Source: Leptodontidium sp. MPI-SDFR-AT-0119 (taxonomy: Eukaryota > Ascomycota > Leotiomycetes > Helotiales > Leptodontidiaceae). From it: a stretch of 64,000 bases of DNA. The notes under the pieces are model-generated. The model was not told the origin of the DNA. It saw nothing but the letters and a program-made list of their open reading frames with translations, and ran no database searches. A program made the position numbers and the translations under genes. Every line of letters begins with the position of its first letter. Within the stretch, counting starts at the first letter, position 1. The DNA lies in contig JAHLEZ010000021.1 in the NCBI GenBank assembly GCA_020726505.1, positions 62,001-126,000 of the forward strand, written 5' to 3'. Positions 2,942 through 52,585 of the stretch are shown one piece after another.

Positions 2942-5052
2942 TTATCTATAATTCTTTTGAACTCGTTTAGGAAGATAGTAAATATCCTCTCCTCTTTAAT
3001 TCCCTTGTGAGCAGTTACTACGGAACTAGCTTAATATAGGGAAGGCTTATATTGAGTAATAGTTTTTAACGAATAGTACTTAAGTTCACTGCACCCCCCG
3101 CAAAATCGATTAAAGCTTTGCCTTTCTCCTCTTTTTCTTCGTCGCAAAACCGAAGAAATTAGTAACTCCTTTTCGCTAGACCTTTTTCTTTAACTCGCCG
3201 AATTAAGCCGAAAGTTATTCCTTTTTTAGTAGAGCAATCTTTTGCCGAAGACGCCGATATGTCGTTTGCCTTTTCTTTGGTTCCCTTACTTAGCTCCCCC
3301 GATGTTAATACCCTTAAAGTTAATACTTCCTTTAATATACTAAGAAGCTGTACAAGGCCTACGAGTATATTTATAAGAGAAACGATTATCGAGAGCCGAC
3401 TTTACATTTTAGAAGAGTTACTTACGGAGACTCGTGTAGAGAACTAGTAGTTAAAGATATTTTTTTAATAACAGCGACTTGTTATCGGCGAACCGCTAGC
3501 GCGTAGATCTGCCTTTAGATTTATGACTTTTTAAGATAAGAATATATCCCTCTATTCTCTAATTAAAGAAACTCCTGCCCTCCAGTTAGATAAAGGCAAA
3601 AGTAAGGTATAAAGTGCACCTGTACTTGTACCTAGACTTAGTAGTTTACTAAATAATAACGATAATAATAGTGGAGACGATTTCCGGCCTTACTATACCC
3701 CTCGTCCTTAGATCCCTCAACGTTCTCGTTCTCTTTTCTTTTCTTATCTTTTTATTATGTTTATAATAACTCGTATTAAGAAGATCCCTAACTTATAAGA
3801 GAAACTTGCTAATAACTACGATTACTAACTAAAGCTTTAGGAAGTTTGAGTTTATAATGCCCTTAAGAGGTATCGTACTTACTTCGTGAATAATAAGTAT
3901 CGGAAAGATTAGATCCTTATATAAACTAATAAATAGCTAGCACGTTCCTAAAGCTAGTATTCCTTAAGCTAGAGTTTAATAAAGATAAGTGTTGGGATAG
4001 CCTTAGCTAGGGGGCATTCTCTTACTCTGACAGCTTCTAAAGATAGTCGTCTCTCCTGGCCTAATAAAGCTTAGTTTCATACCTTGCCTCCTAGTTTCGT
4101 ACGAGTAATGCTTATACGAGCTACGGGGTTTAGTACTTGATGTATTTAAGGTAGCTTTCCCTTTCGTACAAAAGGGACACACGGAATATACTTGATCAAA
4201 CTTCACTTGTTGTATTCTTTGTCACCCTGATATCAGGTATCGAACCTTGGTTAGATACCAACAATAAGACCCCTATCGATGCCCTCGATCTAGTTGATTA
4301 GGTAATTAGGTTCTTAACTAACCCTTATAATTAATAAACCGCACGAAATAAGTACCTTAAGTTAATAATAAGACTTAAAGAGTTGTTTTTAGGACTTTTA
4401 TCAGAAGTTTTATACGTTAATATATTAAGTAAGTATAAACGATAAAAATAATCTTAAAATAAACCTTAAGAATAAGATCGCTTTACGCTTACGTATTAAA
4501 TTATTTAATAAGTATTAGTTCGCGAGTACTTTAAAATAATATATTAAGGCTATTTAAATTAAAGATTAAGGCTAAAATATAAAATGCTGGTATCACGTAC
4601 AGTCGGACCGCTTTAAACACGGTAAATTTTCAGACTTTAGAAAAGTGGGGATATATTTTAATGAAAAGTTGCGCTTTAATATATAAAGCTATTTGGCTTC
4701 TTTACTTTTTTTATTTTACTAAGTAATTAAAAAGTTATACTTAAATATATATAAACAAAACGAGTTTTCAAAAAATATGATACCTTTGTCTTGGCATTAT
4801 CTTTGCTAAGATATAACTTTAGCATTAAGACTTACAAAAAAATCTAATAAGTGCAAAATACTCCCTTTAGCTGTGTACGTATTTTAAATTAAAGAGTTTT
4901 TAAAAATGTTGATATTAAGGATTTCTTTTAAAATAGCTTTTGAGGCTCTAAGAATTAAGTGAGTTGAAATATCTTTAACTTTAACGTCAAAAAATATTAC
5001 TTTTTATAATTACAACTGTTCTTTTCTAACCACGCGCTTCACAAGAGCTAAT
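2942..5052. other. AT-rich degenerate repeat block, no gene
   Basis: Very AT-rich sequence packed with TA and poor in CA and TG dinucleotides, with stops in all frames. Short ORFs (3259-3447 plus, 4003-4206 minus; the latter has a CPFC pair) lack support. It reads as RIP-damaged transposon sequence whose identity I cannot recover. Confidence 0.6.
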
Positions 5053-5799
5053 ATGGCTCCTTCGAAGCGAAATCGAAGTGCTACGCTTGTAAAATCACCT
5101 CCCCAATCGCTTATTAGGCTAATTAGAAAGCGCCCTCGTTAAAAAACACTAGAATCCTTTTCTTTAGCTATTACACCTAGCTTACCCTTACGCCCTACGA
5201 AACCTACTACTACCTTTATACCTACTGCTTTTAATAGTAGTCAAGTCGAAGAATCAGATTCGGAGGAGGAAAATACACTAGCTCAAGTGATTAGCGAATT
5301 AGAGAGCGAAAGAGAGAGTGAGAGTGAAGAAGATGATATTACTTATACTACCGAGTATTTAGATCAAGATCTTAATAAAGAGCTAGGCCCGGATAGGCTA
5401 GACAGGGAGGATATAGACGAATCAGATGCTGAGAATGAAGTAAGCGAGGAGTTTAAAAGTTCTAAGTTTTTTAGTCAGTTAGTTATTGGTTTAGAAGGTA
5501 AACTTAACTTTAAGTTACCTTCTGAAAAAGTAGTTAATTTATTAACTTTTAATACGTATTCTATTCCTTTTAAATATATAATAACTAACTTATAAATAGC
5601 TCTAAAAGGACCTCATATGAATCACTTTGCTTCTCTTAAAAAGAAGTCAAAAAGTACTCAAATGCGAGTAGGAGTAATTCAAAGAGAGTTAAATCGTCAA
5701 ACCTCACTTTAAAAGCTCGCTAAAACACCTTCGATTATCAAATCAACTACTTGACAACCTCTCTCTGCTTTTTTTAAGCCAAAACCTTTACCTTTATAA
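5053..5799 (+). pseudogene. Decayed acidic ORF inside the repeat island
   Basis: One frame is readable from ATG 5053 (MAPSKRNRSATLVKSPP) through a long Glu/Asp/Ser-rich stretch (ESERESESEEDD) to TAA 5797, but is broken by TAA at 5140, 5593 and 5710 and TGA at 5752. Three of the four fit a C-to-T change in CAA or CGA codons. Its end reads QPLSAFFKP, close to a PCNA-binding PIP box. It is probably an accessory protein of a DNA transposon, or the N-terminal part of a mobile-element protein. No function can be assigned. Confidence 0.5.
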
Positions 5800-6119
5800 A
5801 GATTATAATATAACTACCTCGCTTAAAGCTCGCTTATATACTCAATAAAACCTATTCTAGGCCTAATCAGCCGGAAATAGCTTAAAACAAGCCACATACG
5901 TCTGATACAAAGCTCTGACGTCCACAGGTTACAGCCATGGAATCCAAGGCTTCTGATACACGGCTTTCCTAGGCTAAAACAGTGGTTGTACGAAGCTCCG
6001 GGCTCTGCGTCTCAAACTACCGGAAAGCAACTGTATTTGGTAAAGACTCGTTTGAGCTCGTTTGAGCTTACATTTACCTAATTTGGCTACCTAAGCGAAT
6101 ACACACGTGATAAGCTAGA

Positions 6120-6822
6120 GTAGTTATATAGACCTAGAAATCCCCTTTACAATAGAATCATCATTCACACCAAGTATCACTTCTTTTCAACCTTTACTTC
6201 TATAAGAAGAAGATTTATTCGAAGATATCGATTCTAGCGACGACGAAGATTCGGAGTTTGACGCTCTTATAGAGGCTAAATTTGAGGCAGAAGATAACTT
6301 TATTGAGTTAGATGATTTAAACGATATCGAGTTTATTGATAGTGGACGAAGAGAGCTCTTATTAGACTCTCTAATGAGCGACGCAATTATACTTGACTTA
6401 CCTTTCTCTACGTCAAAGACTTATAGAGAAGTCCTCACTTCGCTTAAATAGCAAATTAATAACAAACGCCTTCTCTTACTCCCTCGCGTACGCTTCGAAT
6501 ATTCGCTTATTTAATAATACGTTTAAAACCTCTTAAAAGAGAACCCTCGAAGAGGTATATAAGAATACTAGCCATATGCGAGCCTAATAACCGATGCGAG
6601 CCTTTGATACAAAGCTAGTAACTTGATACAAAGCTAATAACCGATGCGAGCCTCTGATACAAAGCTAGTAACTTGATACAAAGCTAATAACCGATGCGAG
6701 CCTCTGATACAAAGCTAGTAACTTGATACAAAGCTAATAACCGATGCGAGAGCTTAGTACTCGGTACTCAAAGTAGTTATATAGACCTAGAAATGCCCCC
6801 TCAATAGAATCATTATTCACAC
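6120..6822. repeat. Two copies of a ~50-bp motif flanking a decayed acidic ORF
   Basis: GTAGTTATATAGACCTAGAA followed by TCAATAGAATCATyATTCACAC-like sequence occurs at about 6120-6175 and again at 6773-6830. Between them, about 6197-6511, a frame rich in Asp/Glu (EEDLFEDIDSSDDEDSEFDA) is open apart from TAA/TAG stops. The second copy lies just before the transposase frame, so the motif is probably part of the transposon leader, duplicated or present in two nested elements. Confidence 0.5.
6586..6750. repeat. 50-bp tandem repeat, 3.3 units
   Basis: Units begin AATAACCGATGCGAGCC at 6586, 6636, 6686 and (partial) 6736; they differ by one C/T change. Within each unit the phrase TTGATACAAAGCTAGTAAC recurs in shortened form, so the unit itself arose by internal duplication. 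It lies upstream of the transposase relic and may be its subterminal repeat. Confidence 0.85.
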
Positions 6823-6873
6823 TATCATTCTCTATTTTACAAGGTAGAATCGAAGCCTCTTTACTCGTAGCCG

Positions 6874-8701
6874 AGAGTAATCACCCTACTAGAAACGGAA
6901 AAAACGCTTGCCCGAAAGATTAGAGCCTTATATCTCTATTATCGAACCTACGGCTCTTTACCTCTTGAAACTCGTGGTGGTAAACAAAGGAATCGCTTTT
7001 ACCTTAATAACGAAGACGTATTTAGAGCTTGTAGAGCTTGGCTATTAGCTCAAAAGCTCGCTACGGTTACTCTTAAAGGCTTTCGATACGCTCTTAATAC
7101 GCAAACTATGCCTTGTTTACTTGCTTCGGCTAAGACGAGTAAGAAGTCCCTTTTAGGAAAGACTACCGGTACACATAATAAACCCGGTAAAAAGCCAAAG
7201 GAATGGAAACCGCTCGGTAAAACAGTTACTTATAAGTGGTTAAATCGTCTTGGATTTTACGCTACTGAAGAAAAGAAAGGCGTCTACGTAGACAGTCACG
7301 AGAGAGCCGACGTAATCGAATATCGGCAAAACGACTTCCTTCCGCAAATAGCTCACTATACGGCTCTCTCTACGAACTACGAAGAAGACGCTAGTGGCGT
7401 ATTGCAACTTATTCTACCGATTTTATCTTTTAGAGAAAAAGAGCCCGTTATTTATTACTACGACGAGAGTTCCTTTCACGCAAAAGAGTACTCTAAGCGA
7501 ATCTAGTTAGACGAAAGTCAATATAAGATGCTTTCTAAGAGTAAAGGAGGCCTTATTTATTGCTCGGACTTTATAAGTCTCGAAGGGAGGCTTATAATTA
7601 GTCAAAAAGACGCTCGGGAAATCATTTATCCCGGTGGTCTACAAAAGACACCTTATTAGGATACAAAGTAACTACTTAATCAAGTCGAGAGAGCCATTGA
7701 TATATTCGAAGAAAATCACCCTAATAAAGTAGCTGTTTTCGTATTCGACTAATCAAGTGCTTACGCTAGTAAAGGAGACGGAGCTTTAAACGCTTTTACT
7801 ATGAATCTTGGAGAAGGAGGTGTTCCTTTACCTTAAAAGGTTTAGTTATACCTTTTCTTCTAGGAAATATTAACTAACTTTATAGGATACTTACTTTCCC
7901 CTTAATATTAGTGAGGCTAAGCGAGCTCGTGGGTTAGTTGGTACTCCTCAAGAGCTTAATTATAAAGTAGAGAAAGTAGTAAAGGTTGTCGTACCGGGGA
8001 AAAAGAAAAGAGTACAATAAACTGTAATTGAAGAGGTTCTAAAGGGAATAAAGTAAATACTTGCTAAAAGAGGTTGTTTACTAATAGGTAAGTAATAAGA
8101 GCTCTTTTATATTATATAATATACTAATATTTTACAGGCAAAAAGCTTTTACCTACTAAGTGTACTAGTGAAGCTAAAAAGAAGTGTAATAACCTTCTTT
8201 CTTGGCCTCCGCCTCCCGGTACGAAGACTACTTGCTGTTTAGTGAGAATTCTAGCCAATTACAAGGATTTCTTTGAACAAAAATCGGCTCTTGAAGAGAT
8301 ACTATTGGCTAGAGGTTATAAGTGTCTCTTTTTACCGAAGTTTCACTGTGAGCTAAACCCGATTGAGATGTATTGGGCGTATTGTAAGAACCTTTATCGA
8401 TAGGTTTAGAAAGACACTTTTCTACAAGTATATTACACTTTACTTACCCTTTTAGTTATATTTACTTATATACTTCTTTTAGGCTCGAGAAGCTTGCTTT
8501 AAAGCTCTCGATTCTTGTCCTCTTAATACGCTACGAAGGTATTGTAATAGAGCTTTACGCTTTATGGACGCTTACCGAAAAGGGCTTAGCGTAAAGCAAG
8601 CGGCTTAGTGCATTAAAAAACAAAGCGGCCATAGAACGATCTCGGAGACTATAATGAAGGAGTTTAATATAGTACTAGAGAAGCAAGGAGAAATAGACTA
8701 G
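6874..8701 (+). pseudogene. Tc1/mariner-type DDE transposase, RIP-damaged
   Basis: A frame running from about 6874 to TAG 8701 shows the fungal IS630-Tc1-mariner transposase: DNA-binding part (YYRTYGSLPLETRGGKQRNR), first catalytic Asp in YYYDESSFHA, second in VFVFD followed by a stop and SSAYASKGDGALN, and the third acidic residue in FHCELNPIEMYWAYCKN, then CPLNTLRRYCNRALRFMDAY. Two introns are visible, 8088-8137 (TACTAAT branch) and 8428-8482. At least six in-frame stops sit where family members have Gln or Trp (for example YW to Y-stop, FDQ to FD-stop), which means CAA/CAG to TAA/TAG and TGG to TAG. The gene is dead, and the pattern is that of RIP. Confidence 0.85.
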
Positions 8702-27266: not shown

Positions 27267-27335
27267 GGCTTCTAGATAGCCATGATTTTGCAGCTCCTCC
27301 TATCGGCACGAGTGATGACTGACTTTGTACAACAG

Positions 27336-28576
27336 GTGAGCATTGCGTTGCTGAAAATCGCCGTCCCGCCTCGCCAAACGCCGAACGAGGCGATAATGAT
27401 TTCATGTTGGCAAACGAGAATCTCCGCCTGGTCGCAACCACTCAACAGAGCAACCTGGGCACGCCGATCCTGGAAATATCTGAGCACAGATCTCCTTCAG
27501 TCAGTGATAGAACCCAGACGAGCACCGCAGGAAATTTAAGTCAGAAGAGGAGTTTCTCTGAGTTCCAAGAGAGACATGAAGACACCTCCGAGATGACACA
27601 GCACATGCCATCGCCTCAATTGCGCTTCCACGATGTCGGACAAATCGAGTACGTTCAGCAACATCAACCATATACCTCGCCGTATCGATTGCCATCGCTA
27701 CATGTTCCTCATATACCAAGTAGCCATTACCAACAGCCTGACTGTCGGCTGCATCCAACGAATCTTGTCCCCAGCTTGCCACCACTCCAATATAGCCGGT
27801 TCCACGGGCTTCAGAGCACGGGAAACGCGACGGCCATGGCGGAAACGTATCCACAGATTTACAGGAACAATCCACAGCACCCACAGATGCAACTGCACAA
27901 CCAGAACCCAGAACTGCATCATCAGATATACACCTCCTCTCAGAGTCAAGACCCGTCACAGCCACGTGATAGTAACAGCGACAGAACATCAGTCGATCCA
28001 CAGCAGCTTGCACTTGGGTACTCCAGCGGATACTACGGCCCCGCAATGCACCTCGGGCCTGTAGATGTGCCCCCGAATAGCAATCCTGAATGGTCGAGCC
28101 AGCAGGTTGTCTCTGATACCAACGGCAATAAAGTCTTTCGCTTTGTTCCTCAAGGCCCGCACACCATACCAGAACGTAATCTGGTAGGCAGTGATGGGTC
28201 TGATACCAACGGCAATAAAGTCTTTCGCTTTGTTCCTCAAGGCCCGCACACCATACCAGAACGTAATCTGGTAGGCAGTGATGGGTGGTCTATGAACAGT
28301 AGCGACATGCCATGTTCGGGTATGTTACCTGGCCCAACTGCTGATTCGAGACCACCAATTCTAACATCGAAGCTTTCTCAGATTGAACGGACAGTGGCAA
28401 CTTGGTTGAGGAAGAGCAAGACTCCCTTGCCGGACTCTGCCATCGAAGAGAAGGCACGATATTTTGCAGGAATGTCTGGAGGCGAGACCGATCGTCCCGT
28501 GATTAATAGCCCTGGTTGGCTCGAGAAATTCAAGCAAAGGAACGGTATCGCTACCTCGCCGAGCGTCTCATTGTAG
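27336..28576 (+). CDS. CENP-B/Tc5-type HTH protein, or C-terminal part of the Hsp70-like gene
   Basis: The frame is open from the acceptor at 27335 to TAG 28576; the first ATG is 27404. The bulk is Gln/His/Pro-rich and disordered. The C-terminus has a CENP-B/Tc5-type helix-turn-helix: VATWLRKSKTPLPDSAIEEK and NSPGWLEKFKQRNGI, the DNA-binding fold shared by CENP-B and pogo/Tc5 transposases. No DDE domain follows, so it is a host DNA-binding protein or a domesticated fragment. It holds a perfect 29-residue tandem duplication. As a stand-alone gene it would start at 27404, only about 140 bp after the Hsp70 stop. As an exon it joins the Hsp70 gene with matching phase, giving 1063 aa. Confidence 0.75.
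28112..28285 (+). repeat. 87-bp perfect tandem duplication inside the HTH gene
   Basis: Units 28112-28198 and 28199-28285 are identical by eye and encode the same 29 residues, starting SDTNGNKVFRFVPQGPH. The length is a multiple of three, so the frame is kept. Perfect identity suggests a recent event. Confidence 0.95.
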
Positions 28577-30266: not shown

Positions 30267-31160
30267 ATGAGCCTCCTACATTCAAACGAACTGCTCGCCC
30301 ACGAGCCCGGCCAAAGCGTCCTCCGCCATTGTACAAGGCGTCGGTCAAGGAGCTTGCAGAGACAAGCACCATCGGGAGTCAGCTCTTCCACAGCCGACAT
30401 TGACAATGCGATAATTCAGCGGATCAAGAAATGCCTTGAGCGTGCCAACCACCCAAACACGCCAGAAGCAGAGGGCAAAGCACCACTTCATTGGCTTCAC
30501 GGTTGATGGGACAGTACAATATATCACAGGCAGAGGCTGGACAAAGTGTTGTATCAATTCGACGCGTTTAGGTCCTTTTCCCGAGACTCCAAGCAAAACT
30601 CTCGTCCGTCGAACCAGCAACAACTGCCGATGCCAGGAGTGACATCGACGGTGGCCACGCTCTCTCCCACGATGGCGCCTGCAATCTGATATGGTCGGAC
30701 TCGGAGAGAATTGGAGACGACGGCGGAGGCGGTGATCCCGGCCCCCTAGATAAGAGAGCTGATGAGAGCAGCGAAGACTACATTGAGCCGGACTCCAAAG
30801 TGGAAGACAATATAATGTCAACTCCTTCGGAGACTTGGACGAAGAGATCAGCAAGCTCAGAGATCAGCAAGCTCATCAAGCCCTAGCCACTGTCATCCGA
30901 GCCTTCTTTTGGACTGTATTTGTCGCCTCCTGCACCGACAACTCAGAGTAACATTCCCTCCCCACCGCCGAAACGAGAGCCAACACCAACTCGCCCAGCC
31001 GAAACAAAGCAAAAGTCAAACAAGCCACCAGAATTGGAGCCAGAGATGGAGTCACAATGGGCTTCGCAGATGCAACTCGTCACCTTTCGCGCAACAGCCA
31101 CCAAGATTGCAGATGAATACTTAGCACATTCACATCGAATCAAGCTGGGTCGGCCTGGTG
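30267..31160 (+). pseudogene. DUF7168/DUF2786-like protein, frameshifted
   Basis: From ATG 30267 the frame leads to DIDNAIIQRIKKCLERANHP followed by NTPEAEGKAPLH, the start of the DUF2786/DUF7168 helical domain. One base is then missing at about 30492: the expected LASRLMGQYNISQAEAGQS is found in the next frame and runs into TAG at 30569. Acidic and Pro/Glu-rich coding-like sequence continues to about 31155 (MESQWASQMQLVTFRATATK). The family is fungal or phage-like and of unknown function. It is broken unless the assembly has an error here, and it abuts the 1.2-kb duplicated segment. Confidence 0.55.
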
Positions 31161-31823
31161 ACTTTGCCGGCTGCGGTCATCGACGGCGATGATGACATTT
31201 GCGATACTGCGACACATGCCGTGTACCCAGTACCCCACCATTCGAGTCCACCTTCAATATCGTCCTCGTCGTCGACATCGTCCCCACTCTCCTCCCTCCG
31301 CAGCTCTCCTGCATCGTCGCCGCCGCCTTTTACCATTTCATCACCCCGCATCTCGTTGCGTGGTACATCTGGCAACGGCCCGAGCTATGACGGGATGTAT
31401 GTGGGCATGGATGGACCGAATAAAAGGAAGCGTAGGCGTACGTCTTGTGGAGCACCGCATAAGGCAACCGAGTCCAGCCAGTTAGAACGACCTTTGACTA
31501 AGGCGATCGAAGCTGTGGGCACGAACGATGCAGCGGGCGAAGCCTTCGATGGGCAAGTGCAGAAGTCAAACCCAGAGTTGCTACATACTGGCGCGGAAGA
31601 GGCTACTGTTCTCAAGGGCGAGCTCCCAGCCGCATCCCCTCCTAAAGCAGAAAATGCCTGTGAGGGAGCAGATCTGAAAAATCAGGTTACATCCCTAGAA
31701 GGTGGTATGCTGGAAATACTGCGGCGAGAAGACGCTGTCGAGATCATGACATCCCTGGTACTAACAGCTACGAAAGCTCGGACTCAAGCAGCCTTTGATT
31801 ATTCTCCCCCCAATAGAAGGTAG
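31161..31823 (+). CDS. Hypothetical disordered ORF within the duplication, copy 1
   Basis: An open frame of about 220 residues, Ser/Pro-rich at first, with a basic NLS-like NKRKRRRTSC and a C-terminal helix (DAVEIMTSLVLTATKARTQA). The first ATG is only at MYVGMDG, so it may be the 3' exon of the broken gene upstream. It is identical in both duplication copies. Function unknown, possibly not expressed. Confidence 0.35.
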   Translation, partial: TLPAAVIDGDDDICDTATHAVYPVPHHSSPPSISSSSSTSSPLSSLRSSPASSPPPFTISSPRISLRGTSGNGPSYDGMYVGMDGPNKRKRRRTSCGAPHKATESSQLERPLTKAIEAVGTNDAAGEAFDGQVQKSNPELLHTGAEEATVLKGELPAASPPKAENACEGADLKNQVTSLEGGMLEILRREDAVEIMTSLVLTATKARTQAAFDYSPPNRR

Positions 31824-34161: not shown

Positions 34162-36542
34162 ATGGCAGATCAGGCACGCTCGGAGATCATCAAAGATAAT
34201 CCTATTGGGAAAGGCCTCGATGCTTTCCGCGCTTCATACACCGCAGTCTGTGAAAACCAGAGCATCCCCTCCACTCTGGACTCGCTGGGCAAGCTTGGCC
34301 ATGATGGTAATACAGCCCAGCTCCGTTGACGTGCACTACTGACTATTTTGCAGAGCTCCAAAACATCGCCCTTGTCCTTCTCTCGACACTGCAGATCCTC
34401 CCGGCCGCTCGTCTACTCCGTTCCAGCGGTGGAAGAACCCTCTTCAGCGAACTACCAAGACTAAATTCGGCGATCACTTCCGATGACTTTGACCTCGACG
34501 GTATCAAACCTCTCTTGAATGCAGCGCTCGCCGACAGTCCAGACGATGTGCTCATCTGGGATCAAGTCTACAACGCCGTCACCGAATCCACCCCGCCCCT
34601 CCGACCGATAGCATCTTCCGTCCAACAAACCCCATGGCTCCGCAACACAAGCAGCTTCGCGAATTCTTCTGAACATCGCAAGTACGTGGACGCTGTGCTT
34701 AAAGAAGAGCTCGGCCCTATGTATGTTGGGCTCCGCAATTTCCACGAGACATATTTTGGAGATGTTGCAGACCTTGAGACAGCATCCGCGGCGGTCTTCA
34801 AGATGTGCATGGAGGGCAACAGTCCAATTTTTTGTGAAGGGTGGAGTGGATGGCCCGAAGATGCAAATCAGGATCATGTCTTGGGCTGGTTTGCGGAATT
34901 GAGCGAGAAGCTGGCAGCATTCGCAGAGGACTATAAGTCAACACCGACACGTCAACGAAGGCCATTGGCACAGCCTAACAAGCCGATTGACGGTTCCATA
35001 GCGAAGCGCAAGATGGACATTGGCTTCGTGAACGATCCCGAGGCTAGGAAAGACTCGAGATGCCATTGGTCCCAGATCCTCGTGCCAGGAGAGCTGAAGA
35101 GTAATCGATCCGCCGATATAGCTTCAGAAGCATGGCTTGATCTTGGGAGGTATGCAAGAGAGGTGCTCGCTGCTCAAGACACTCGTCGCTTCGTCTTGGG
35201 CTTTACCATCTGCGGATCTCTCATGAGGGTGTGGGAGTTTGATCGGCTCGGGGGGATCGCATCCAAACAATTCGACATCAACGAAGATGGCCTGCAGTTT
35301 GTGTCCACGATCCTCGCGTTTCTCTGGATGAATGAGGAACAACTTGGGTTCGATCCTACAGTTATCACAGAAAATGGCCTGCGGTTTATTGAGATTCAAC
35401 GGAAGGGTACTACGGAGCGGCTTATCATCGACGGGTTGATGACGCGGGCGCGTTGCATATCCGGCCGGGCGACGACTTGTTGGAAGGCCCATCGCGAGGG
35501 AGACCCGCAGACACCGCTTGTTATCAAGGACTCCTGGCAGTACACGGAGCGTGAGGAAGAAGGAGAGCTGCTCCGAGAGGCGACTGACAAGGGTGTGGTC
35601 AACGTGGCCCGATACTATCACCATGAGATTGTCCGGGTCCTTGGTACGGATGACGACGTTCGAAGCAATGTTCGGAAGGGACTGGATATCATGAAGGCGG
35701 AAAACTACCGGCCGGAACGTTCGATGATATCCCCAAGCAGGAGTACAGTTGGTGCACGGAAAGGTCGCAGCAGCAGCACCACCGGCTTGAAGCGGTCATC
35801 CAGCCAGACTGGCGCCCCTCTACCGCCTAGCAAGCGATCCTGTTCGACATCTCCGACGAAGGCCGGCAGCAATGCTCTACCAAATCGAGTGCATCGGCGT
35901 GTCATCCTTCGTGATTATGGGAAGCCGATCTACAAGGCTGGCTCCCGAGCAGCTCTACTTACCGCACTGGAGGGCTGCATTGAAGGCCACGAGTCCTTGC
36001 GTAAAGCCGGCTTCCTCCACAGAGACATCTCAATCAACAACCTCATGATGAATGAAGACGAAGAGAACCCTTCCTGGCCTTCGTTCTTGATCGACCTCGA
36101 CCTTGGGATCAAAGAAACACGGAGGGAGGCTTCCGGCGCCAGAGGCAAGACTGGCACGAGGGCTTTCATGGCCATAGGTGCCCTCCTTGGCGAGCAGCAT
36201 ACATTTATGCATGACCTCGAGTCAATCTTCTGGGTGCTTTTCTGGATCTGCATTCACTATGATGGACCAAATCAGGAAAGGGTTGTTGCACAATTCGACA
36301 AGTGGAATTACGTGGACATGGAAGAGTTGGCCAAATTGAAGTTAGGTACTGTGGCGAAGGAGACAATTTTCATGAAGACGATCACGGATAATTTCACGTC
36401 TTATTTCGAGCCGCTTATTCCATGGGTGAACAGGCTGCGGAAGATTGTCTTCCCAAGAGACAGGCCGCAGGAACAGGAAGACGAAAGGCTCTACTCTCGA
36501 ATTAAAGGGATTCTCCGGGAGGCATGCGAAGACTTGACTTGA
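34162..36542 (+). CDS. FunK1-type protein kinase, 777 aa
   Basis: Exons 34162-34306 and 34354-36542 (47-bp intron, phase kept, 2334 nt). The N-terminal 400 residues carry the FunK1 region (VPGELKSNRSADIASEAW, GFTICGSLMRVWEFDRLGG). The kinase core follows: VILRDYGKPIYKAGSRA, catalytic loop HRDISINNLMMN, metal site FLIDLDLGI (DLD where most kinases have DFG, usual for FunK1), GTRAFMAIGAL and HDLESIFWVLFWI. A Ser-rich linker is present (GRSSSTTGLKRSSSQTG). This fungal-specific family is expanded in multicellular fungi; substrates are unknown. The gene appears intact. Fragments of the same family lie at 53.1 and 63.4 kb. Confidence 0.92.
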
Positions 36543-39376: not shown

Positions 39377-42300
39377 TTATCCAACGGAGATCGCACCCTG
39401 CAGACACCTTTGCTTATCGTGGAGAAAGTTGAAAACTTGCTTCCGTTGTTGATTTTGAGGACGGAGTTGCGAAAAGAATACTCGTCGAGTAAAAAATCCA
39501 AACCGTTTTTTCCAATGGTTCTTAAGAATTTCTAGGTCGCGGTCCCAACTCTTATTACTAAGGTTCAGTAATTGATCGACGATCCCAAATTTGTTTAGTT
39601 GACACGAAAGAAGTTTAAAAATTAGCACTGCCTGTAGCAAATTTTGAACAGCAGCCACGAGCACCGGTTCCGTGATCTGGAGAGAAGGGTCTTTTCTCCA
39701 CAAGAATTTGAGGACTTGTACTGCCTCATACCCGTTCTGAGCAGCGGCCGTCAGCACAGCTTCAGTGACTTTAAGGGAAGGGTCTTTTCTCCAGAGGAAT
39801 TCGAGGACTTGGACTGCCTGGTCTTTGTTCCGAGCAGCGGCCGTGAGCACAGCTTCAGTGATCTCGAGAGAAGCGTCTATTCTCCAGAGGAATTGGAGGG
39901 CTTGGACTGCCTGGTCGTTATTCTGAGCAGCGGCTACGAGTACAACTTTAGTAATCTCAAGGGAAGGGTCTTTTCTCCACAGGAATTGGAGGACTTGGAC
40001 TGCCTGGTCGTCGTTCTCTGCAGCGGCCGCGAGCACAGCTTCAGTAATCTTAAGGGAAGGGTCTTTTCTCCAGAGGAACTGGAGGACTTGGACTGCCTGG
40101 TCGTCGTTCTCTGCAGCGGCCGTGAGCACAGCTTCAGTAATCTTAAGGGAAGGGTCTTTTCTCCAGAGGAATTGGAGGGCTTGGACTGCCTGGTTCCAGC
40201 TCTGAGCAGCGGCCGCGAGCACAGCTTCGGTGATCTCGAGGGAAGGGTCTTTTCTCCACAGGAATTCGAGGGCTTGGACTGCCTGGTTCCTGTTCCGAGC
40301 TGCAGACGTGAGCACAGCTTCGGTGATCTTAAGGGAAGGGTCTTTTCTCCAGAGGAATTGGAGGACTTGGACTGCCTGGTCTTTATTCCGAGCAGCGGCC
40401 GTGAGCACAGCTTCGGTGATCTTGAGGGAAGGGTCTTTTCTCCAGAGGAATTGGAGGGCTTGGACTGCCTGGTTCCAGCTCTGAGCAGCGGCCGTGAGCA
40501 CAGCTTCGGTGATCTCGAGGGAAGGGTCTTTTCTCCAGAGGAACTGGAGGGCTTGGACTGCCTGGTCATCGTTCTGAGCTGCGGCCGTGAGTATAGCTTC
40601 AGTGATCTTGAGGGAAGGGTCTTTTCTCCAGAGGAACTGGAGGGCTTGGACTGCCTGGTTCCAGCTCTGAGCAGCGGCCGCGAGCACAGCTTCAGTGATC
40701 TCGAGGGAAGCGTCTATTCTCCAAAGGAATTGGAGGACTTGGACTGCCTGGTCGTTATTCTGAGCAGCGGCTATGAGTACAACTTCAGTGATCTCGAGAG
40801 AAGGGTCTTTTCTCCAGAGGAATTGGAGGGCTTGGACTGCCTGGTCGTCGTTCCAAGCAGCGGCCGTGAGTATAGCTTCAGTGATCTTAAGGGAAGGGTC
40901 TTTTCTCCAGAGGAACTGGAGGACTTGGACTGCCTGGTTGTCGTTCTCTGCAGCGGCCGTGAGCACAGCTTCAGTGATCTCGAGGGAAGGGTCTTTTCTC
41001 CAGAGGTACTGGAGGGCTTGGACTGCCTGGTCATCGTTCCGAGCAGCGGCCGCGAGCACAGCTTCGGTGATCTCGAGGGAAGGGTCTTTTCTCCAGAGGA
41101 ACTGGAGGGCTTGGACTGCCTGGTCATCGTTCCCTGCAGCGGCCGCGAGCACAGCTTCAGTGATCTCGAGGGAAGGGTCTTTTCTCCAGAGGAACTGGAG
41201 GGCTTGGACTGCCTGGTTCCTGCCCCGAGCGGCGGCCGCGAGCACAGCTTCAGTGATCTCGAGGGAAGGGTCTTTTCTCCAGAGGAACTGGAGGGCTTGG
41301 ACTGCCTGGTCATCGTTCCGAGCAGCGGCCGCGAGCACAGCTTCGGTGATCTCGAGGGAAGGGTCTTTTCTCCACAGGAACTGGAGGGCTTGGACTGCCT
41401 GGTCATCGTTCTGAGCTGCAGACTTGAGCACAGCTTCGGTGATCTCGAGGGAAGGGTCTTTTCTCCACAGGAATTGGAGGGCTTGGACTGCCTGGTCGTC
41501 GTTCCAAGCAGCGGCCGTGAGTATAGCTTCAGTGATCTTGAGGGAAGGGTCTTTTCTCCAGAGGAACTGGAGGACTTGGACTGCCTGGTTGTCGTTCTCT
41601 GCAGCGGCCGTGAGCACAGCTTCAGTGATCTCGAGGGAAGGGTCTTTTCTCCAGAGGAATTGGAGGGCTTGGACTGCCTGGTCGTCGTTCCCTGCAGCGG
41701 CCGCGAGCACAGCTTCAGTGATCTCGAGGGAAGGGTCTTTCCTCCAGAGGAACTGGAGGGCTTGGACTGCCTGGTTCCTGCCCCGAGCGGCGGCCGCGAG
41801 CACAGCTTCAGTGATCTCGAGGGAAGGGTCTTTTCTCCAGAGGAACTGGAGGGCTTGGACTGCCTGGTTCCTGCTCCGAGCGGCGGCCGCGAGCACAGCT
41901 TCAGTGATCTCGAGGGTAGGGTCTTTTCTCCAGAGGAACTGGAGGACTTGGACTGCCTGGTTGTCGTTCTCTGCAGCGGCCGTGAGCACAGCTTCAGTGA
42001 TCTCGAGGGAAGGGTCTTTTCTCCAGAGGAACTGGAGGGCTTGGACTGCCTGGTTCCTACTCCGAGCGGCGGCCGCGAGCACAGCTTCGGTGATCTCGAG
42101 GGAAGGGTCTTTTCTCCAGAGGAACTGGAGGGCTTGGACTGCCTGGTTCCTACTCCGAGCGGCGGCCGCGAGCACAGCTTCAGTGATCTCGAGGGAAGGG
42201 TCTTTTCTCCAGAGGAACTGGAGGGCTTGGACTGCCTGGTCATCGTTCTGAGCTGCGGCCGTGAGCACAGCTTCAGTGATCTCGAGGGAAGGGTCTTTTC

Positions 42301-45300
42301 TCCAGAGGAACTGGAGGGCTTGGACTGCCTGGTTCCTGCTCCGAGCGGCGGCCGCGAGCACAGCTTCAGTGATCTCGAGGGTAGGGTCTTTTCTCCACAG
42401 GAATTGGAGGACTCGGACTGCCTGGTTATTGTTTGCAGCGGCCGTGAGCACAGCTTCAGTGATCTCGAGGGAAGGGTCTTTTCTCCACAGGAATTGGAGG
42501 ACTCGGACTGCCTGGTTATTGTTTGCAGCGGCCGTGAGCACAGCTTCAGTGATCTCGAGGGAAGGATCTTTTCTCCACAGGAATTGGAGGACTCGGACTG
42601 CCTGGTTATTGTTTGCAGCGGCCGTGAGCACAGCTTCAGTGATCTCGAGGGAAGGGTCTTTTCTCCACAGGAATTGGAGGACTCGGACTGCCTGGTTATT
42701 GTTTGCAGCGGCCGTGAGCACAGCTTCAGTGATCTCGAGGGAAGGGTCTTTTCTCCAGAGGAATTGGAGGGCTTGGACTGCCTGGTCATCGTTCTTAGCG
42801 GCGGCCGTGAGCACAGCTTCAGTGATCTCGAGAGAAGGGTCTTTTCTCCAGAGGAACTGGAGGGCTTGGACTGCCTGGTCATCGTTCTGAGCTGCGGCCG
42901 TGAGTATAGCTTCAGTGATCTTGAGGGAAGGGTCTTTTCTCCAGAGGAACTGGAGGGCTTGGACTGCCTGGTCATCGTTCTTAGCGGCGGCCGTGAGCAC
43001 AGCTTCAGTGATCTCGAGGGTAGGGTCTTTTCTCCACAGGAATTGGAGGACTCGGACTGCCTGGTTGTCGTTCCAAGCAGCGGCCGTGAGCACAGCTTCA
43101 GTGATCTCGAGGGTAGGGTCTTTTCTCCAGAGGAACTGGAGGACTCGGACTGCCTGGTTGTCGTTCTCTGCAGCGGCCGTGAGCACAGCTTCAGTGATCT
43201 CGAGGGAAGGGTCTTTTCTCAAGAGGAATTCGAGGACTTGGACTGCCTGGTCTTTATTCCGAGCAGCGGCCGTGAGCACAGCTTCAGTGATCTCGAGGGA
43301 ACAGCCTTTTCTCGAAAGAAGCTGGAGCATTCTCAATCCCTGTCTCCTGTTTTCTGCAGCAACCTTTAAAACCTCTTCGTCACACTTAAACACCCATTTG
43401 TCGAAATCCAGTGCAACTAGTATATCCACAGAAGGAGATCTAACCGCGTTCAATATTGTTTCTCTTTCAAGCATGGCGTTGAGTCCCTTGGTCTGCAAAA
43501 GTTGTAACATTTGAGCAGCTCCTTCCTGCCTCCTAGTAGCCAACTCATAAATTGAATGTTCTGAAAAGGAACTTGGCTCCAAACGAGGTAACAATTTCTG
43601 TACAACACTGAGGTCGTCTTCCTGGTACTCTCCAGATACCACCTTATAAATCAGATCATGGTTAATAAGATCGTCGTCGCAAAATTCAAGTAGCTTTTCA
43701 ACCAAATCTGCATCAATGCGTGGTGATTTGCCAAATTGATATACTGCCATGCTAATACCAAGATCTCTGACCTTGCCCAAAAACGACTTCAGGCATAGGA
43801 AATTACCTCGCTGGACTAAGGTTTCGCAAAAAAGCGTCGTCAAGGCTGTCTGCTCTGACCAATCAGTACCATTTTGCTCAAGTAGCATTTCCATCAGGTC
43901 TCGCGCATGTGCTTGATTAGAGGCGCATGCAACGGTAATCTCTTCATCCAAAAGGACTACCCCAGGAAAGTGTAGTAATAGCATACGCATCACTAATCTC
44001 CCTTTGTCTCGGTTCTTGGTCGCTGCAAATATAGCATCAATCGAAATATCCACCTCTGCATCATGGCCGAGCAGATACTCGACAATCTTATCCCCACAAG
44101 CCTCATTCTGTGAGGCAATTTCGATCGCTTCAGTTGTGATACATAGGCCAGGTATCCGTTCGAAAATCATCTCGATCATCTCTAGTCCACAAGACTCGTT
44201 TGCCGCAATAACCTCGACTAGCCAGCTTAGTTCTTCTGGTGTATCGACAAAATCAAGAAAGACGCCGAGTAACTCGGCGTTAGGAAACATGGCTGTATTC
44301 CATAGCGCATCCCATACGAGAGAGGGATTTTTGGCCGAGCATAGAGCATCTTTCAGGATTTCTGGTTCAATTTTGTAGTTGCCGCTCAATGCTTCTGCAA
44401 GCAAGTTACTTCTCGTGGCAAGATCATCCTTTCGTACCTCGCGAAATAGCTTCATGAGCTCGCTACCAAAGCTTGTATTACTTGCAGCGCTCTCAAAGAT
44501 CGCATCATCAAGAGTGAGAGGCAAGCTGAGAAGCTTTTCGAAGACTCTTATGTCGGGGATTATGTCAAGGAAAGACATTGATGTTGCTGTCTCTATGACC
44601 AGAGAAGTAACGCCCTGAAAGTGTTCTAGTAACTCTGTCACAATCTCGCTGCTAGAATTGCGATTTCTTATCGCAGCTATAATGACATTGTCGAGGTCCG
44701 TGACTTCGAATTTGTTTGTCAAGAGCAACTTCACGAGCTCCGGTCCACTTTTTTGATTCCTAGCAGCAGCAATAATGACATTGTCAGGGTCTGTAACTTC
44801 GATTTTGTAGGTCAAGAGCAACTCCACCAGCTCCAGTCCACTTTTTTCATTCCTTGCAGCAGCTTCCAAGACCTCCTGAGTGAGATAAACTGGTGAAAAG
44901 GCGTCCAACAGAATCTTGAATGTCCCAAAATTGGCTTCTTTAGCGCTCGTGATGATCACTTCTTCGTCTGGCTTCCAATCCGGAAATTGAGCAAATATCA
45001 GCCGTAATATTGCCCTCCCTGTCTCATGGTTGCTCGCAGCAGCTTCAACTGTCTGTTGACCTATTCTCGTGGGCTTGAATTTGTTAAACAACAAACGTAA
45101 CATTGAGAGGCCGTGGTTCTCATTCGAAGCTGCAGCAGCATACACCTCCTCATTGCATGTCTGCAGTTCTGGTAAAAGCAATTGAACAGTCTTCTCTCCA
45201 TGCTCTTCATTACGTGCTGCGGCCACGAGTAGATCCTCTTTCCAAAAGTCGCACTGGGTCATCGGGCCAGTCACACAATTTCGAAGAAGCCCGAAAGTTC

Positions 45301-48225
45301 TCGCTTTGCAATGACGAGCAGCTTCTTCTAAGATACCATATGTAATGAGATTCTCTGGATGCCGATCAAGGAGCCATTTCACGAAAGTATCCTTGCCAGT
45401 ACGCACAGCTGCATGTATTTCCATGGATCGAACGTAAGTTGAGTGATTGTCAGGAATCCTTTCTCTGATTACCTCTTCAACTCTTTTGTGGTCGTGCCGA
45501 ATCGCGACATAGAGAGGCTGCAGTCTACTAATTCTTGTACGAACCGTGAAGTCGTCACTATTATCCAGCATATTCTTGACAATTTCAGAGAAGCCAAAAG
45601 CACATGCAACCAACGTTCGACTAGGTGGGTCGGCGTTCCATTCGTCTAGGCTGTCTAGCAGTTTGGTAGTCAACTGCTTAGAGTCGATATCTTTGGCATT
45701 AAGATCCATGCTATTGAGAGATCCATGGAGTTCTCGATGCCACCTAGCGAATTCACGAGATGTGCTCTGGCCACCTCGGAGAAAATGCCGGAGTTTGTCT
45801 TCCAGTGGCACTTTGAGAATGCCAAGCTTTTGATCCGTCCCTGCAAGACTATAGTGATAGGGCCAATAGGCATTTGCGTAGTCTCTAAAACTCTTGTTGT
45901 CTCTGTTCGGCATTTGATACTGTTGCCTGGTACGTTGTGATAGACATTGCTCGAGGCACATATCAGCCACGACTCGATTCAGCAGTTCTTTTGGCCAATC
46001 CTGTCGCTGGTCTTCGAAATAATTGGTGACCGAAAGGTGAAAGATCCGAAATCGGTCAAGATCTTCGTCATGCTTGACGAAATTGCGGCAGATATCTATG
46101 ACGTCCTCCTTGGTCTTGATCTCAGGATGGTCAAAACCGACATTGAGAGCTTGTATGAAATCAAAGGTCGAGATTGGCTGCCTTGCACAGAGCAACCACG
46201 CAATCGCTTTATGTGCGATCATTTGGCTTAAGGTACCTTGGGCCAGAAGTTGCTGGTAGATGACGTCATAACTGGCCTCGAGGCCCGGTGGAAGTTTTAA
46301 TAGCTGATGCTCCATGTCTCCCTCTAGCTTATTTATATTCGTGTCAAACAAAGCTTGTAGCTGCAGACCAACCCAGCGAAATCTTTTAAACTTAGTCTGG
46401 TGCAGACAGAGAGGAAGCAACACTTACATGCCCCCGGATTTGTCAACAAGCTCCTTCTCTATTTTCGTCGCAAGCCGGGCCGAAATGCGCCGACTAGAAG
46501 TTTTCGATCTACGTTGTATCGCCTTCTCCAATTCCTCCTCAACATACTTCCGAATGTCTGCTTTATTGTCCTGAGCATCAATCCAATGATATGGATAATC
46601 TAAGAAGGCCCCGCGAATGTCAGTGTCATCCCGACTGGCAACAAATATCTTAACTGCATTTCCAGGGGAGGACGCTATGGTTTTGAGGCCTTGCAAAAAG
46701 GCTTCGCGCTTGCCGTCTTGGCTATGACACTCATCGAGGCCGTCAATGATAATAGTAGCTGAGCTGATGTCTTTTAGTTCAATGATGAGGTCGATAGTCT
46801 CATCGATCTCGAGATCTCGTTCCTGATCCGAATTGACTATCTCCTCATAGTGGCGGGCTACTACGGAGTATGCCAAAGGAACCGACTCCCCAGACTGCAC
46901 TAACTGTCTCGCTATAGAACGGAGAACATTTGATGGATCACCTCGTTTGGTATCATCAGACGTCCTCGAACAGTAGAAGTACGCGATCCGAGTCGAGCTC
47001 TGTGCTGTCTCCTTCTCTAGGAGGATTGAGTCTATAACTCTCGATCTAAAACATACTGGATTAGCTTCCAATTTGAGTGATCGAGTAATGAACTCACGTC
47101 AAGAATGTCTTCCCTGATCCGGCTGTTGTAAGTCGCAGTTAGAACAAGGTTGGCGATATACTATATACCAGACGATGGTCGTAACTAAAGAAAAAGATAA
47201 ATGGGAACATGGAAACATGGAAACAACTCGAGCGAGGACATACGTAAACCCCGTAGCCACAAAATATCTGATTCAGGACGAGTCTTCCAGTTCTTGAACT
47301 TCGTTGTTTTCAATAGCCACTCTCCAGATCCTTCAGACCTGCTCTTACTGTTATGACGATGATGTTTTTCATATGGGGTGTTTGAGAGCCAATTCATAAC
47401 TCTTTTCTTTTGTGCCAATTCCTCTATAATATTATTAGTATTTGATATTCATATAGATGGTAAGCGGTTACTCTTCAAAGGCTTGTCGATCTCCTTCTGG
47501 AGTCGCTTGAGCGCCTTCTCTTCTCCTTCGCCAGGGAGGAAAGGCAGTTGGACATCGAAAATGCCAAATAGCGAGTATGCCTTGTCTTCTCCACGCGTGG
47601 TCTGACGGCCTTTTGCCCATGACAATCGCTGCTCGACGCCGAATTGAGACAGAGCGGTTCCTCGAAGTGCTGCAAGAGGAATTCCCGTTATGTCGTGGAT
47701 TTGTCGCTCTAAATCTTTCTTATTACCTAGCCGCTCGCCCTCTCGGGAGAAAAATTCCGTTGATTCCGGGCCCGGCGCAAGAAGCTCTTGAAGAGTCCAA
47801 CCGCGTGTAAACCATTCGCTTCTCCGGAAATAATGTTCCCAATGATGCTCGGAGAATCGTTCGCTCAAGTGCCGCTCTCTTGCCGGCGGCACATCCCGTA
47901 GATAGACGTAACATTTGTCCGCCTTCTGGTACCAGCCAAACATTGAGTTGATCGCCTCCTGAAGCTCGAGGCTACTCGACTTATCGATGCAGCAGGTATC
48001 CACCCAGAAGTAGGCCAGCTTATCGCAAGCAGCCTGCCGCGCACAGAACCGGATCTTGTCGTAGCCAGCCTTGCTCTTGCCAGTACCATCTTTAATGTCC
48101 CTGAAGGTGACTTCCTCACTATCTTTCCCCCATCTGTGCGAAAGTATGGCGTAAGAGGGAACATTGCCAACATATTCCTCGGTCAGGCTGAACTCGCCAT
48201 CCTCGTCACACTCCAGAAGACGCAT
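39377..48225 (-). CDS. HET-NACHT-repeat NLR-like protein, five exons, 2860 aa
   Basis: Exons 48225-47472, 47423-47244, 47122-47098, 47045-46428 and 46382-39377 (introns 48, 121, 52 and 45 bp) give 8583 nt without a stop. The N-terminal HET domain has YAILSHRWGKDSEEVTF, YFWVDTCCIDKSSS, WFTRGWTLQELLAP and DKAYSLFGIFDV. A linker leads into NACHT: Walker A GLPGSGKTFLTS (assembled across two splices), IAYFYCSRTSDD, Walker B ATIIIDGLDECHSQDG and KIFVASRDD. Then come FRWVGLQLQALFD, winged-helix-like LPPGLEASYDVIYQQLL, about 900 residues of diverged ankyrin-like helical repeats, and about 40 near-identical 31-residue repeats. In known fungal NLR proteins ligand binding by the repeats triggers NACHT oligomerisation and HET-mediated cell death in non-self recognition; here that role is inferred. 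The start is the ATG of MRLLECDEDGEFSL, the usual HET beginning. Confidence 0.92.
39650..43340 (-). repeat. About 40 tandem 93-bp repeats in the NLR gene
   Basis: The period is 93 bp (31 codons), with a run of four 90-bp units at about 42395-42760. Read on the minus strand each unit has EITEAVLTAAA, four variable residues, then QAVQVLQFLWRKDPSL. Positions 12-15 (for example ENDN, RSRN, QSWN, RGRN, RNKD) and 19-20 (QV, QA, RV) vary most; the rest is almost constant. The units resemble ankyrin-like helical repeats of fungal NLRs; I believe Pfam DUF7104 is the closest model. Whole blocks of several units recur, a sign of recent unequal exchange. Confidence 0.95.
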
Positions 48226-51731: not shown

Positions 51732-51922
51732 GTAAGACTATCGAAAGGTTGATGATATATCTGAACACGATTTCGAGACACATGACTGATTGCACTATAT
51801 AGCTGTACATACAGTTCCTGCCCTGATCACCAGTCAAGCGCGGTCGATCTATATCCTCATTCGCATCCAAATTCATCCTTCTCAGAACGTCCTACGACCT
51901 TACGCCCAAGTCAGGATCTCTT

Positions 51923-52585
51923 ACTTTGCCGGCTGCGGTCATCGACGGCGATGATGACATTTGCGATACTGCGACACATGCCGTGTACCCAGTACCCCAC
52001 CATTCGAGTCCACCTTCAATATCGTCCTCGTCGTCGACATCGTCCCCACTCTCCTCCCTCCGCAGCTCTCCTGCATCGTCGCCGCCGCCTTTTACCATTT
52101 CATCACCCCGCATCTCGTTGCGTGGTACATCTGGCAACGGCCCGAGCTATGACGGGATGTATGTGGGCATGGATGGACCGAATAAAAGGAAGCGTAGGCG
52201 TACGTCTTGTGGAGCACCGCATAAGGCAACCGAGTCCAGCCAGTTAGAACGACCTTTGACTAAGGCGATCGAAGCTGTGGGCACGAACGATGCAGCGGGC
52301 GAAGCCTTCGATGGGCAAGTGCAGAAGTCAAACCCAGAGTTGCTACATACTGGCGCGGAAGAGGCTACTGTTCTCAAGGGCGAGCTCCCAGCCGCATCCC
52401 CTCCTAAAGCAGAAAATGCCTGTGAGGGAGCAGATCTGAAAAATCAGGTTACATCCCTAGAAGGTGGTATGCTGGAAATACTGCGGCGAGAAGACGCTGT
52501 CGAGATCATGACATCCCTGGTACTAACAGCTACGAAAGCTCGGACTCAAGCAGCCTTTGATTATTCTCCCCCCAATAGAAGGTAG
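51923..52585 (+). CDS. Hypothetical disordered ORF within the duplication, copy 2
   Basis: Same predicted residues as the copy-1 ORF (NKRKRRRTSC, DAVEIMTSLVLTATKARTQA) but without the upstream DUF7168-like exon; the left flank is unrelated. It is therefore unlikely to be expressed as in copy 1. Confidence 0.25.
   Translation, partial: TLPAAVIDGDDDICDTATHAVYPVPHHSSPPSISSSSSTSSPLSSLRSSPASSPPPFTISSPRISLRGTSGNGPSYDGMYVGMDGPNKRKRRRTSCGAPHKATESSQLERPLTKAIEAVGTNDAAGEAFDGQVQKSNPELLHTGAEEATVLKGELPAASPPKAENACEGADLKNQVTSLEGGMLEILRREDAVEIMTSLVLTATKARTQAAFDYSPPNRR

What the first reader, a model, noticed from the sequence alone, without database searches (positions are those of the whole stretch)
39377..48225. 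Giant HET-NACHT receptor with ~40 near-identical 31-residue repeats
A single minus-strand gene joins HET, NACHT (GLPGSGKTFLTS, ATIIIDGLDECHSQDG) and a very long helical repeat array. Fungal NLRs with HET effectors usually carry WD40, ankyrin or TPR sensors; this array of ankyrin-like units with strong internal identity is unusually long. By analogy with HET-NACHT-WD40 incompatibility proteins, it may be a fast-evolving non-self recognition receptor. The motifs, exon phases and repeat count are seen directly; the role is inferred.
Basis: partly seen in the sequence, partly recalled or inferred. Interest (0 to 1): 0.85.

Follow-up and report, generated by a model that had tools for sequence, protein, structure and literature searches.

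The report
Fungal immune receptor with 40-unit sensor
A fungus carries a gene for a giant intracellular receptor that looks spliced together from two receptor lineages: a cell-death trigger domain, an ATP-driven switch, and a sensor of forty very similar repeats that differ from one another mainly in one small patch, as expected if that patch does the recognising.

Summary
A five-exon minus-strand model (48225-39377, 2860 aa) reads HET, NPHP3_N/NACHT, a weak winged helix, degenerate ankyrin-like units, and 40 units of about 31 aa matching Pfam DUF7104. Ten units are predicted (pLDDT 95) as an ankyrin-like two-helix solenoid without beta-hairpin. Over 39 units mean identity is 83% (aa) and 89% (nt); 47% of amino-acid variability lies in positions 13-16, the helix A-B turn.

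Exon 1 (HET) is 59-69% identical to HET of seven chosen loci of the same genome, five of them HET-NACHT-WD40. NACHT and the stretch after it are 63-66% identical to a Coleophoma protein with a different N-terminus and no HET found, but NACHT is 26-28% to those five. The join lies at the intron 1 border.

Receptors with internally conserved WD/ANK/TPR repeats are known (Dyrka 2014, at most 21 conserved ANK or TPR units). This is a new variant: a 40-unit DUF7104 array on a HET-NACHT mosaic. Expression, ligand and strain polymorphism are untested.

The parts
47472..48225 (-). Exon 1: start codon and HET effector domain (aa 1-251; PF06985 at aa 25-147), with AILSHRWG, WVDTCCID and FTRGWTLQE at aa 26, 74 and 139 (that these are the three conserved HET blocks is recalled)
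   Evidence: HET matches at 59-69% in seven chosen own-genome loci
47424..47471 (-). Intron 1 (48 nt, GT..AG); border at which homology to Coleophoma P0001 begins
   Evidence: the gene aligns to P0001 from aa 254 onward
47244..47423 (-). Exon 2: start of NPHP3_N, ending with GL and one base of P of the Walker A stretch
47098..47122 (-). Exon 3: 25-nt exon carrying the rest of PGSGKTFL and two bases of T (Walker A)
46428..47045 (-). Exon 4: rest of NPHP3_N/NACHT, including Walker B IIIDGLDE (aa 418)
   Evidence: NPHP3_N aa 283-458; NACHT aa 305-458
46013..46243 (-). Winged-helix-like region after NACHT (aa 573-649; GPIID_WHD 18.7 bits, under the cut-off of 27)
   Evidence: 66% identical to P0001 over aa 527-760
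43298..45418 (-). Degenerate ankyrin/DUF7104-like helical region (aa 848-1554)
   Evidence: model of aa 859-1732, pLDDT 77, pTM 0.39; 49% to P0001 over 788 columns within aa 761-1554
39590..43297 (-). Array of 40 DUF7104 units (aa 1555-2790), period 93 bp; most variable at unit positions 13-16 and 9
39377..39589 (-). C-terminal tail (aa 2791-2860) and stop codon

Best explanation
It is an intracellular receptor of the STAND/NLR class. At rest the NACHT ATPase is held closed; an elongated DUF7104 solenoid, ankyrin-like and about 40 units plus the degenerate region long, samples the cell. A non-self or modified-self protein binds along the ridge formed by the helix A face (positions 9 and 13) and the A-B turns (13-16). 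This releases the NACHT, which oligomerises and brings HET domains together, and HET executes cell death. The array is kept uniform by unequal exchange and conversion while the ridge diversifies, so new binding surfaces arise by changing unit number and order. The HET exon was joined to this backbone by recombination near intron 1, probably replacing a DUF7708-like N-terminus, which changed the output while keeping the sensor. Shown: the motifs, the fold prediction, the pattern of variability, and the discordant relationships of exon 1 and exons 2-5. Inferred: expression, ligand, the switch, cell death, and the direction of the swap. Defence against other organisms is as likely as, or more likely than, allorecognition.
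Against: No RNA, protein, ligand or second strain. Over positions 13-16 as a whole pN/pS is 0.83 (0.57-1.22), because synonymous change is also high there (pS 0.40); the sites with pN well above pS were picked after seeing the data, and the units are not independent. Three further arrays (P0005, P0044, P0001) vary broadly, not only at the turn. HET support in Pfam is moderate (2.9e-10). The HET branch of this gene is long (0.44), and HET of proteins from other sources is as close (P0174 69.8%, P0168 69.2%) as the best own-genome one, so an own-genome donor is not shown. The direction of the swap is not proven; the C6 relative is interrupted by a TAG between its N-terminal and NACHT frames.
Confidence: 0.72

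Rival explanations
1. The array is a tandem satellite that expanded neutrally inside an NLR gene; its uniformity is only unequal crossing-over and its variation has no binding role.
For: Neighbouring units resemble each other more than shuffled order (0.904 against 0.886, sd 0.005) and consecutive near-identical blocks are in excess at my cut-off of 0.965 (6 against 2.3, p 0.0165), as unequal exchange gives. Synonymous change is also concentrated near the turn.
Against: Open frame throughout; pN/pS 0.17 outside the variable sites; variability peaks at the turn in P0010 and P0015 too.
Confidence: 0.1
2. Two genes: exon 1 is a separate HET gene next to a NACHT-DUF7104 gene.
For: The reading frame of exon 1 closes 23 nt after the donor, stop included; the best homolog of exons 2-5 has no HET match.
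Against: Consensus GT..AG 48-nt intron in phase. In own-genome loci L018 and L019 the HET frame also ends just before a NACHT frame. HET-NACHT fusions are frequent among the listed hits.
Confidence: 0.08
3. The repeat number is an assembly error (collapsed or expanded array).
For: PMC12222747 (abstract seen) reports that the WD40 arrays of het-d and het-e cannot be rebuilt from Illumina assemblies; here 3 pairs of units are identical in DNA and the near-identical units 7-10 lie side by side.
Against: 37 distinct DNA units among 40; 77 Mb in 69 contigs, the contig 1.16 Mb long, which suggests long reads.
Confidence: 0.08
4. A scaffold or housekeeping STAND protein, not a non-self receptor; the solenoid binds a constant endogenous partner.
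For: Not every fungal NACHT protein need be immune: Ncp in Penicillium herquei is reported to be required for unconventional protein secretion (PMC13311144, title and start of abstract in listing only).
Against: Concentrated variability in the array and large HET/NACHT numbers in the genome; different N-terminal domain in the Coleophoma relative.
Confidence: 0.1

Closest known systems
HET-NACHT-WD40 receptors, including HNWD (HET-E, HET-D, HET-R) of Podospora anserina
   Same: N-terminal HET, central NACHT, C-terminal repeats; in HNWD the repeats are highly conserved with a few codons under positive selection (PMC2873952 and PMC12881547 passages). The HET exon groups with HET of HET-NACHT-WD40 loci of this genome.
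   Different: NACHT only 26-28% to five such loci and outside their clades and that of Podospora HNWD3; HET lies apart from Podospora HNWD3; sensor is a DUF7104 solenoid of 40 units, not WD40 propellers, which usually have 11 conserved repeats in functional het-d/het-e alleles (PMC12222747 abstract).
Internally conserved ANK/TPR NLRs (Dyrka et al. 2014, PMC4986451, sections 13, 17 and 20 read)
   Same: Conserved repeats in fungal NLRs; there, with one exception in the ANK case, the variable sites map to the concave surface.
   Different: Their highest counts of conserved ANK or TPR units were 21 each, with ANK units of typically 33-34 aa; here 40 units of 31 aa in another Pfam family.
Coleophoma crateriformis BP5796_12979 (P0001; Helotiales)
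   Same: NACHT 63%, aa 527-760 66%, middle region 49%, DUF7104 array in the same place.
   Different: N-terminus related to DUF7708/NACHT_N proteins by BLAST instead of HET (no Pfam match there at 0.001); its units are on average only 47% alike and 46% to ours.
Other DUF7104 arrays with uniform stretches: P0015 (unnamed), P0010 (Morchella snyderi), P0005 (unnamed), P0044 (Aspergillus fumigatus, dynamin-like)
   Same: Same repeat family; 4 of 45 hits have a 100-residue stretch at least 70% identical one period on, 2 of 45 at least 85%; turn variability clearest in P0010 and P0015.
   Different: No HET by Pfam in P0010, P0015 and P0044 (P0005 not scanned, no HET in its list); fewer regular units found (7-21); P0044 has dynamin domains instead of NACHT.

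Membership tests
Fungal NLR / STAND receptor | N-terminal effector, NACHT with Walker A and B, C-terminal superstructure-forming repeats | tested here: met
Fungal NLR / STAND receptor | Ligand-triggered oligomerisation and cell death | not testable with these tools
   no experiment
HNWD / HET-NACHT-WD40 | HET domain at the N-terminus | tested here: met
   HET clade of Helotiales HET-NACHT-WD40 loci, not that of Podospora HNWD3
HNWD / HET-NACHT-WD40 | NACHT of the HET-NACHT-WD40 clades | tested here: not met
   26-28% identity, tree with P0001 99/97
HNWD / HET-NACHT-WD40 | WD40 repeats | tested here: not met
   DUF7104 instead; no WD40 family listed
DUF7104 (PF23397) | Profile match over curated cut-off | tested here: met
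   421.5 bits against 26.1
High-internal-conservation repeats (Dyrka 2014) | Over 85% identity over at least 100 aa | tested here: met
   310-aa blocks of ten units against the first block: 82-89%, 4 of 9 over 85% and 3 of 9 at 85% as printed; the mean over all 39 units is 83%, just under
Ankyrin repeat | Stacked antiparallel helix pairs in an ankyrin-type solenoid | tested here: met
Ankyrin repeat | 33-aa unit with beta-hairpin finger | tested here: not met
   31 aa and no strands in the predicted model; model only
het (vegetative incompatibility) gene | Allelic polymorphism causing incompatibility between isolates | not testable with these tools
   one genome only

The most novel reading that the evidence does not exclude
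The array is a modular reader: each of 40 units contributes its turn residues (16 different types at positions 13-16 among 39 units, one of them with only three residues) to contact one step of an extended ligand, such as a peptide or nucleic acid, so that unit order spells specificity, in the manner of PPR or TALE repeats. Unit reshuffling would then rewrite a receptor's target.
Probability: 0.05. Interest if true: 0.9.

Novelty: new variant of a known kind. Interest (0 to 1): 0.55.

Why it matters
It shows an internally conserved sensor of a repeat family that has no paper in the searched library under its Pfam name, about twice as long as the largest counts of conserved ANK or TPR units in the 2014 survey. 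It also gives a concrete case of N-terminal exchange: one receptor backbone with HET in one Helotiales fungus and a DUF7708-like domain in another, with the break at an intron border. Which surface of the repeat binds can be tested directly, because the variable positions are few and predicted to lie together.

Tried and rejected
Canonical ankyrin array: rejected for the 40 units by length and lack of strands, kept as fold relationship. RIP hypermutation as source of unit variation: the array's indices (TpA/ApT 0.50) do not look RIPped. Exchange of units with another array in the genome: outside this gene only two loci matched, on C10 and C20, at 29-34% identity (34 of 34 candidates scored), so no close donor was found. 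One search listed 9 DUF7104 matches on five contigs but not the window's own array, so that count is a lower bound. Foldseek's PPR matches were judged general helix-pair likeness after VIA-align. An annotated protein for this locus was looked for in three searches: none near 100% was listed. PF06985 and PF23397 together: 0 of 45 listed; 0 seen among the 120 of 3681 listed and the 120 of 7997 listed (some printed domain lists are cut). Papers: DUF7104, 0 papers; Leptodontidium with the strain number, 0 papers; one search found 2 papers on internally conserved NLR repeats. Trees: rows were chosen by me (41 besides GENE in the NACHT tree, 40 in the HET tree); P0201 dropped out of the NACHT tree for lack of a match and the bootstrap had not settled; the HET tree used the quick method without bootstrap. 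A slicing of P0015 by fixed 32 residues lost its register (mean identity 0.53); its 10 regular units were used instead.

Full report
WHAT IS THERE. The window is part of contig C14 (bases 62001-126000) of a 77.0-Mb, 69-contig genome. The gene lies on the minus strand. Pfam finds HET, NPHP3_N/NACHT, ankyrin families in the middle and DUF7104 (PF23397) over the C-terminal half. TRF gives 39.7 copies of 93 bp. By pattern there are 40 units, four of them 30-mers and the last one degenerate.

WHOSE GENOME. Two proteins from public records, P0076 and P0148, lie on contigs of 6,862,130 and 1,163,561 bases, the lengths of C1 and C14 here. The HET of P0076 is identical to that of locus L019, and the HET of P0148 lies at zero tree distance from that of L024. 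Both are named Leptodontidium sp. MPI-SDFR-AT-0119, a Helotiales fungus. The literature search with the strain number gave no paper. That such strain numbers stand for Arabidopsis root isolates is recalled, not a call result.

VARIATION. Over 39 units mean identity is 83.2% (protein) and 88.7% (DNA). Positions 13-16 carry 6.43 of 13.73 bits of summed entropy; 512 of 100,000 shuffles of column order have a four-column stretch as variable. Position 9 is the most variable outside the turn; it lies four residues before 13 and so on the same helix face. For positions 13-16 pN/pS is 0.83 against 0.30 for all other positions; the bootstrap difference is 0.23-0.94. At single sites a clear excess of non-synonymous change holds for 9, 13, 20 and 21, hardly for 16, and not for 14 and 15, where synonymous change is high as well. 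These sites were chosen after looking, and conversion between units breaks the independence that such ratios assume; I take them as a pattern, not a formal test of positive selection. Among five other arrays profiled, the peak at the turn is clear in P0010 (Morchella, 21 units) and P0015 (10 regular units), with a further peak at position 9 in P0015 and a small one in P0010; P0005, P0044 (7 units) and Coleophoma P0001 vary broadly.

CONCERTED EVOLUTION. Units of this gene are 0.83 alike, Coleophoma units 0.47, and the two sets 0.46 to each other (19 Coleophoma pieces of regular length used; three double-length pieces were left out). Neighbours are more alike than shuffled order predicts, and consecutive blocks repeat. 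This is what homogenisation of the array after the two lineages parted would give. Outside this gene no close copy of the unit was found in the genome.

MOSAIC. The gene aligns to Coleophoma P0001 from aa 254; exon 1 codes aa 1-251. The first 300 residues of P0001 match, at 22-32% identity, N-termini of seven other retrieved proteins (P0006, P0024, P0014, P0031, P0009, P0041, P0003), each listed with PF17100 or PF24809; P0001 itself has no Pfam match there at 0.001 and no HET match. HET of this gene is 59-69% identical to HET of seven loci that I chose from the 152 own-genome matches. Five of them (L018, L019, L020, L023, L024) are HET-NACHT-WD40; for L021 and L022 no NACHT match was seen. Against those five the NACHT is 26-28% identical. 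Among 268 retrieved proteins, a set drawn by the three searches and so not random, the eight best NACHT matches have no HET match; in the 40 rows printed, every protein with a HET match has HET identity of at least 52% and NACHT identity of at most 31.4%. HET of proteins from other sources reaches 69.8% (P0174), so the donor need not be this genome. The NACHT tree joins GENE and P0001 with 99/97; the bootstrap had not settled. The HET tree (quick method) puts GENE, on a long branch of 0.44, in a starred 19-row clade with own_L018 to own_L023, apart from L024 and Podospora HNWD3. The nearest own-genome NACHT locus, on C6, carries a DUF7708-like N-terminus just under the Pfam cut-off (24.1 against 25 bits), with a TAG between that frame and the NACHT frame. 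The simplest account is that a HET exon replaced a DUF7708-like N-terminus near intron 1.

GENOME SETTING. At least 157 NPHP3_N matches (150 of 331 candidates scored) and at least 152 HET-exon matches (150 of 295 candidates scored) are present; several HET copies carry many stops. Two other DUF7104 loci examined (L016, L017) are divergent ankyrin/DUF7104 arrays and have no HET match.

WHAT IS KNOWN. Dyrka et al. 2014 (PMC4986451; sections 13, 17, 20 read) describe internally conserved WD, ANK and TPR repeats in fungal NLRs, their preferential association with HET among other N-terminal domains, repeat-number polymorphism and variable sites on the binding surface. [quoted passage not shown] PMC2873952 (passages) describes repeat instability in hnwd genes. 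The present gene looks built to work like these; it is a new variant because of its repeat family, its length and its mixed ancestry.

Noticed in passing
39638-43369, + strand: A 1243-aa open frame antisense to the array; read as a by-product of a 93-bp period without stops in that frame.
   Followed up: partly
P0044 (Aspergillus fumigatus ACP6JB_007675): Dynamin GTPase plus dynamin central region followed by a DUF7104 array with a uniform stretch: the same sensor type on a different NTPase.
   Followed up: partly
27323-28573: Frame with a Tc5-type transposase DNA-binding domain; it holds a perfect 87-bp tandem duplication at 28112-28286.
   Followed up: no
4001-8000: AT-rich stretch (GC 0.36, TpA/ApT 1.58) that looks RIP-affected.
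   Followed up: no
34311-36539, + strand: Fungal protein kinase (PF17667, 1.3e-144) about 3 kb from the gene.
   Followed up: no
31125-31820 and 51827-52585: Two frames share the same peptide stretch (LPAAVIDGDDDICDTATHAVYPVP), so a segment is duplicated within the window.
   Followed up: no
HET copies on C47, C69, C12 and C41: HET regions with 13 or more in-frame stops, as decayed duplicates would show.
   Followed up: no
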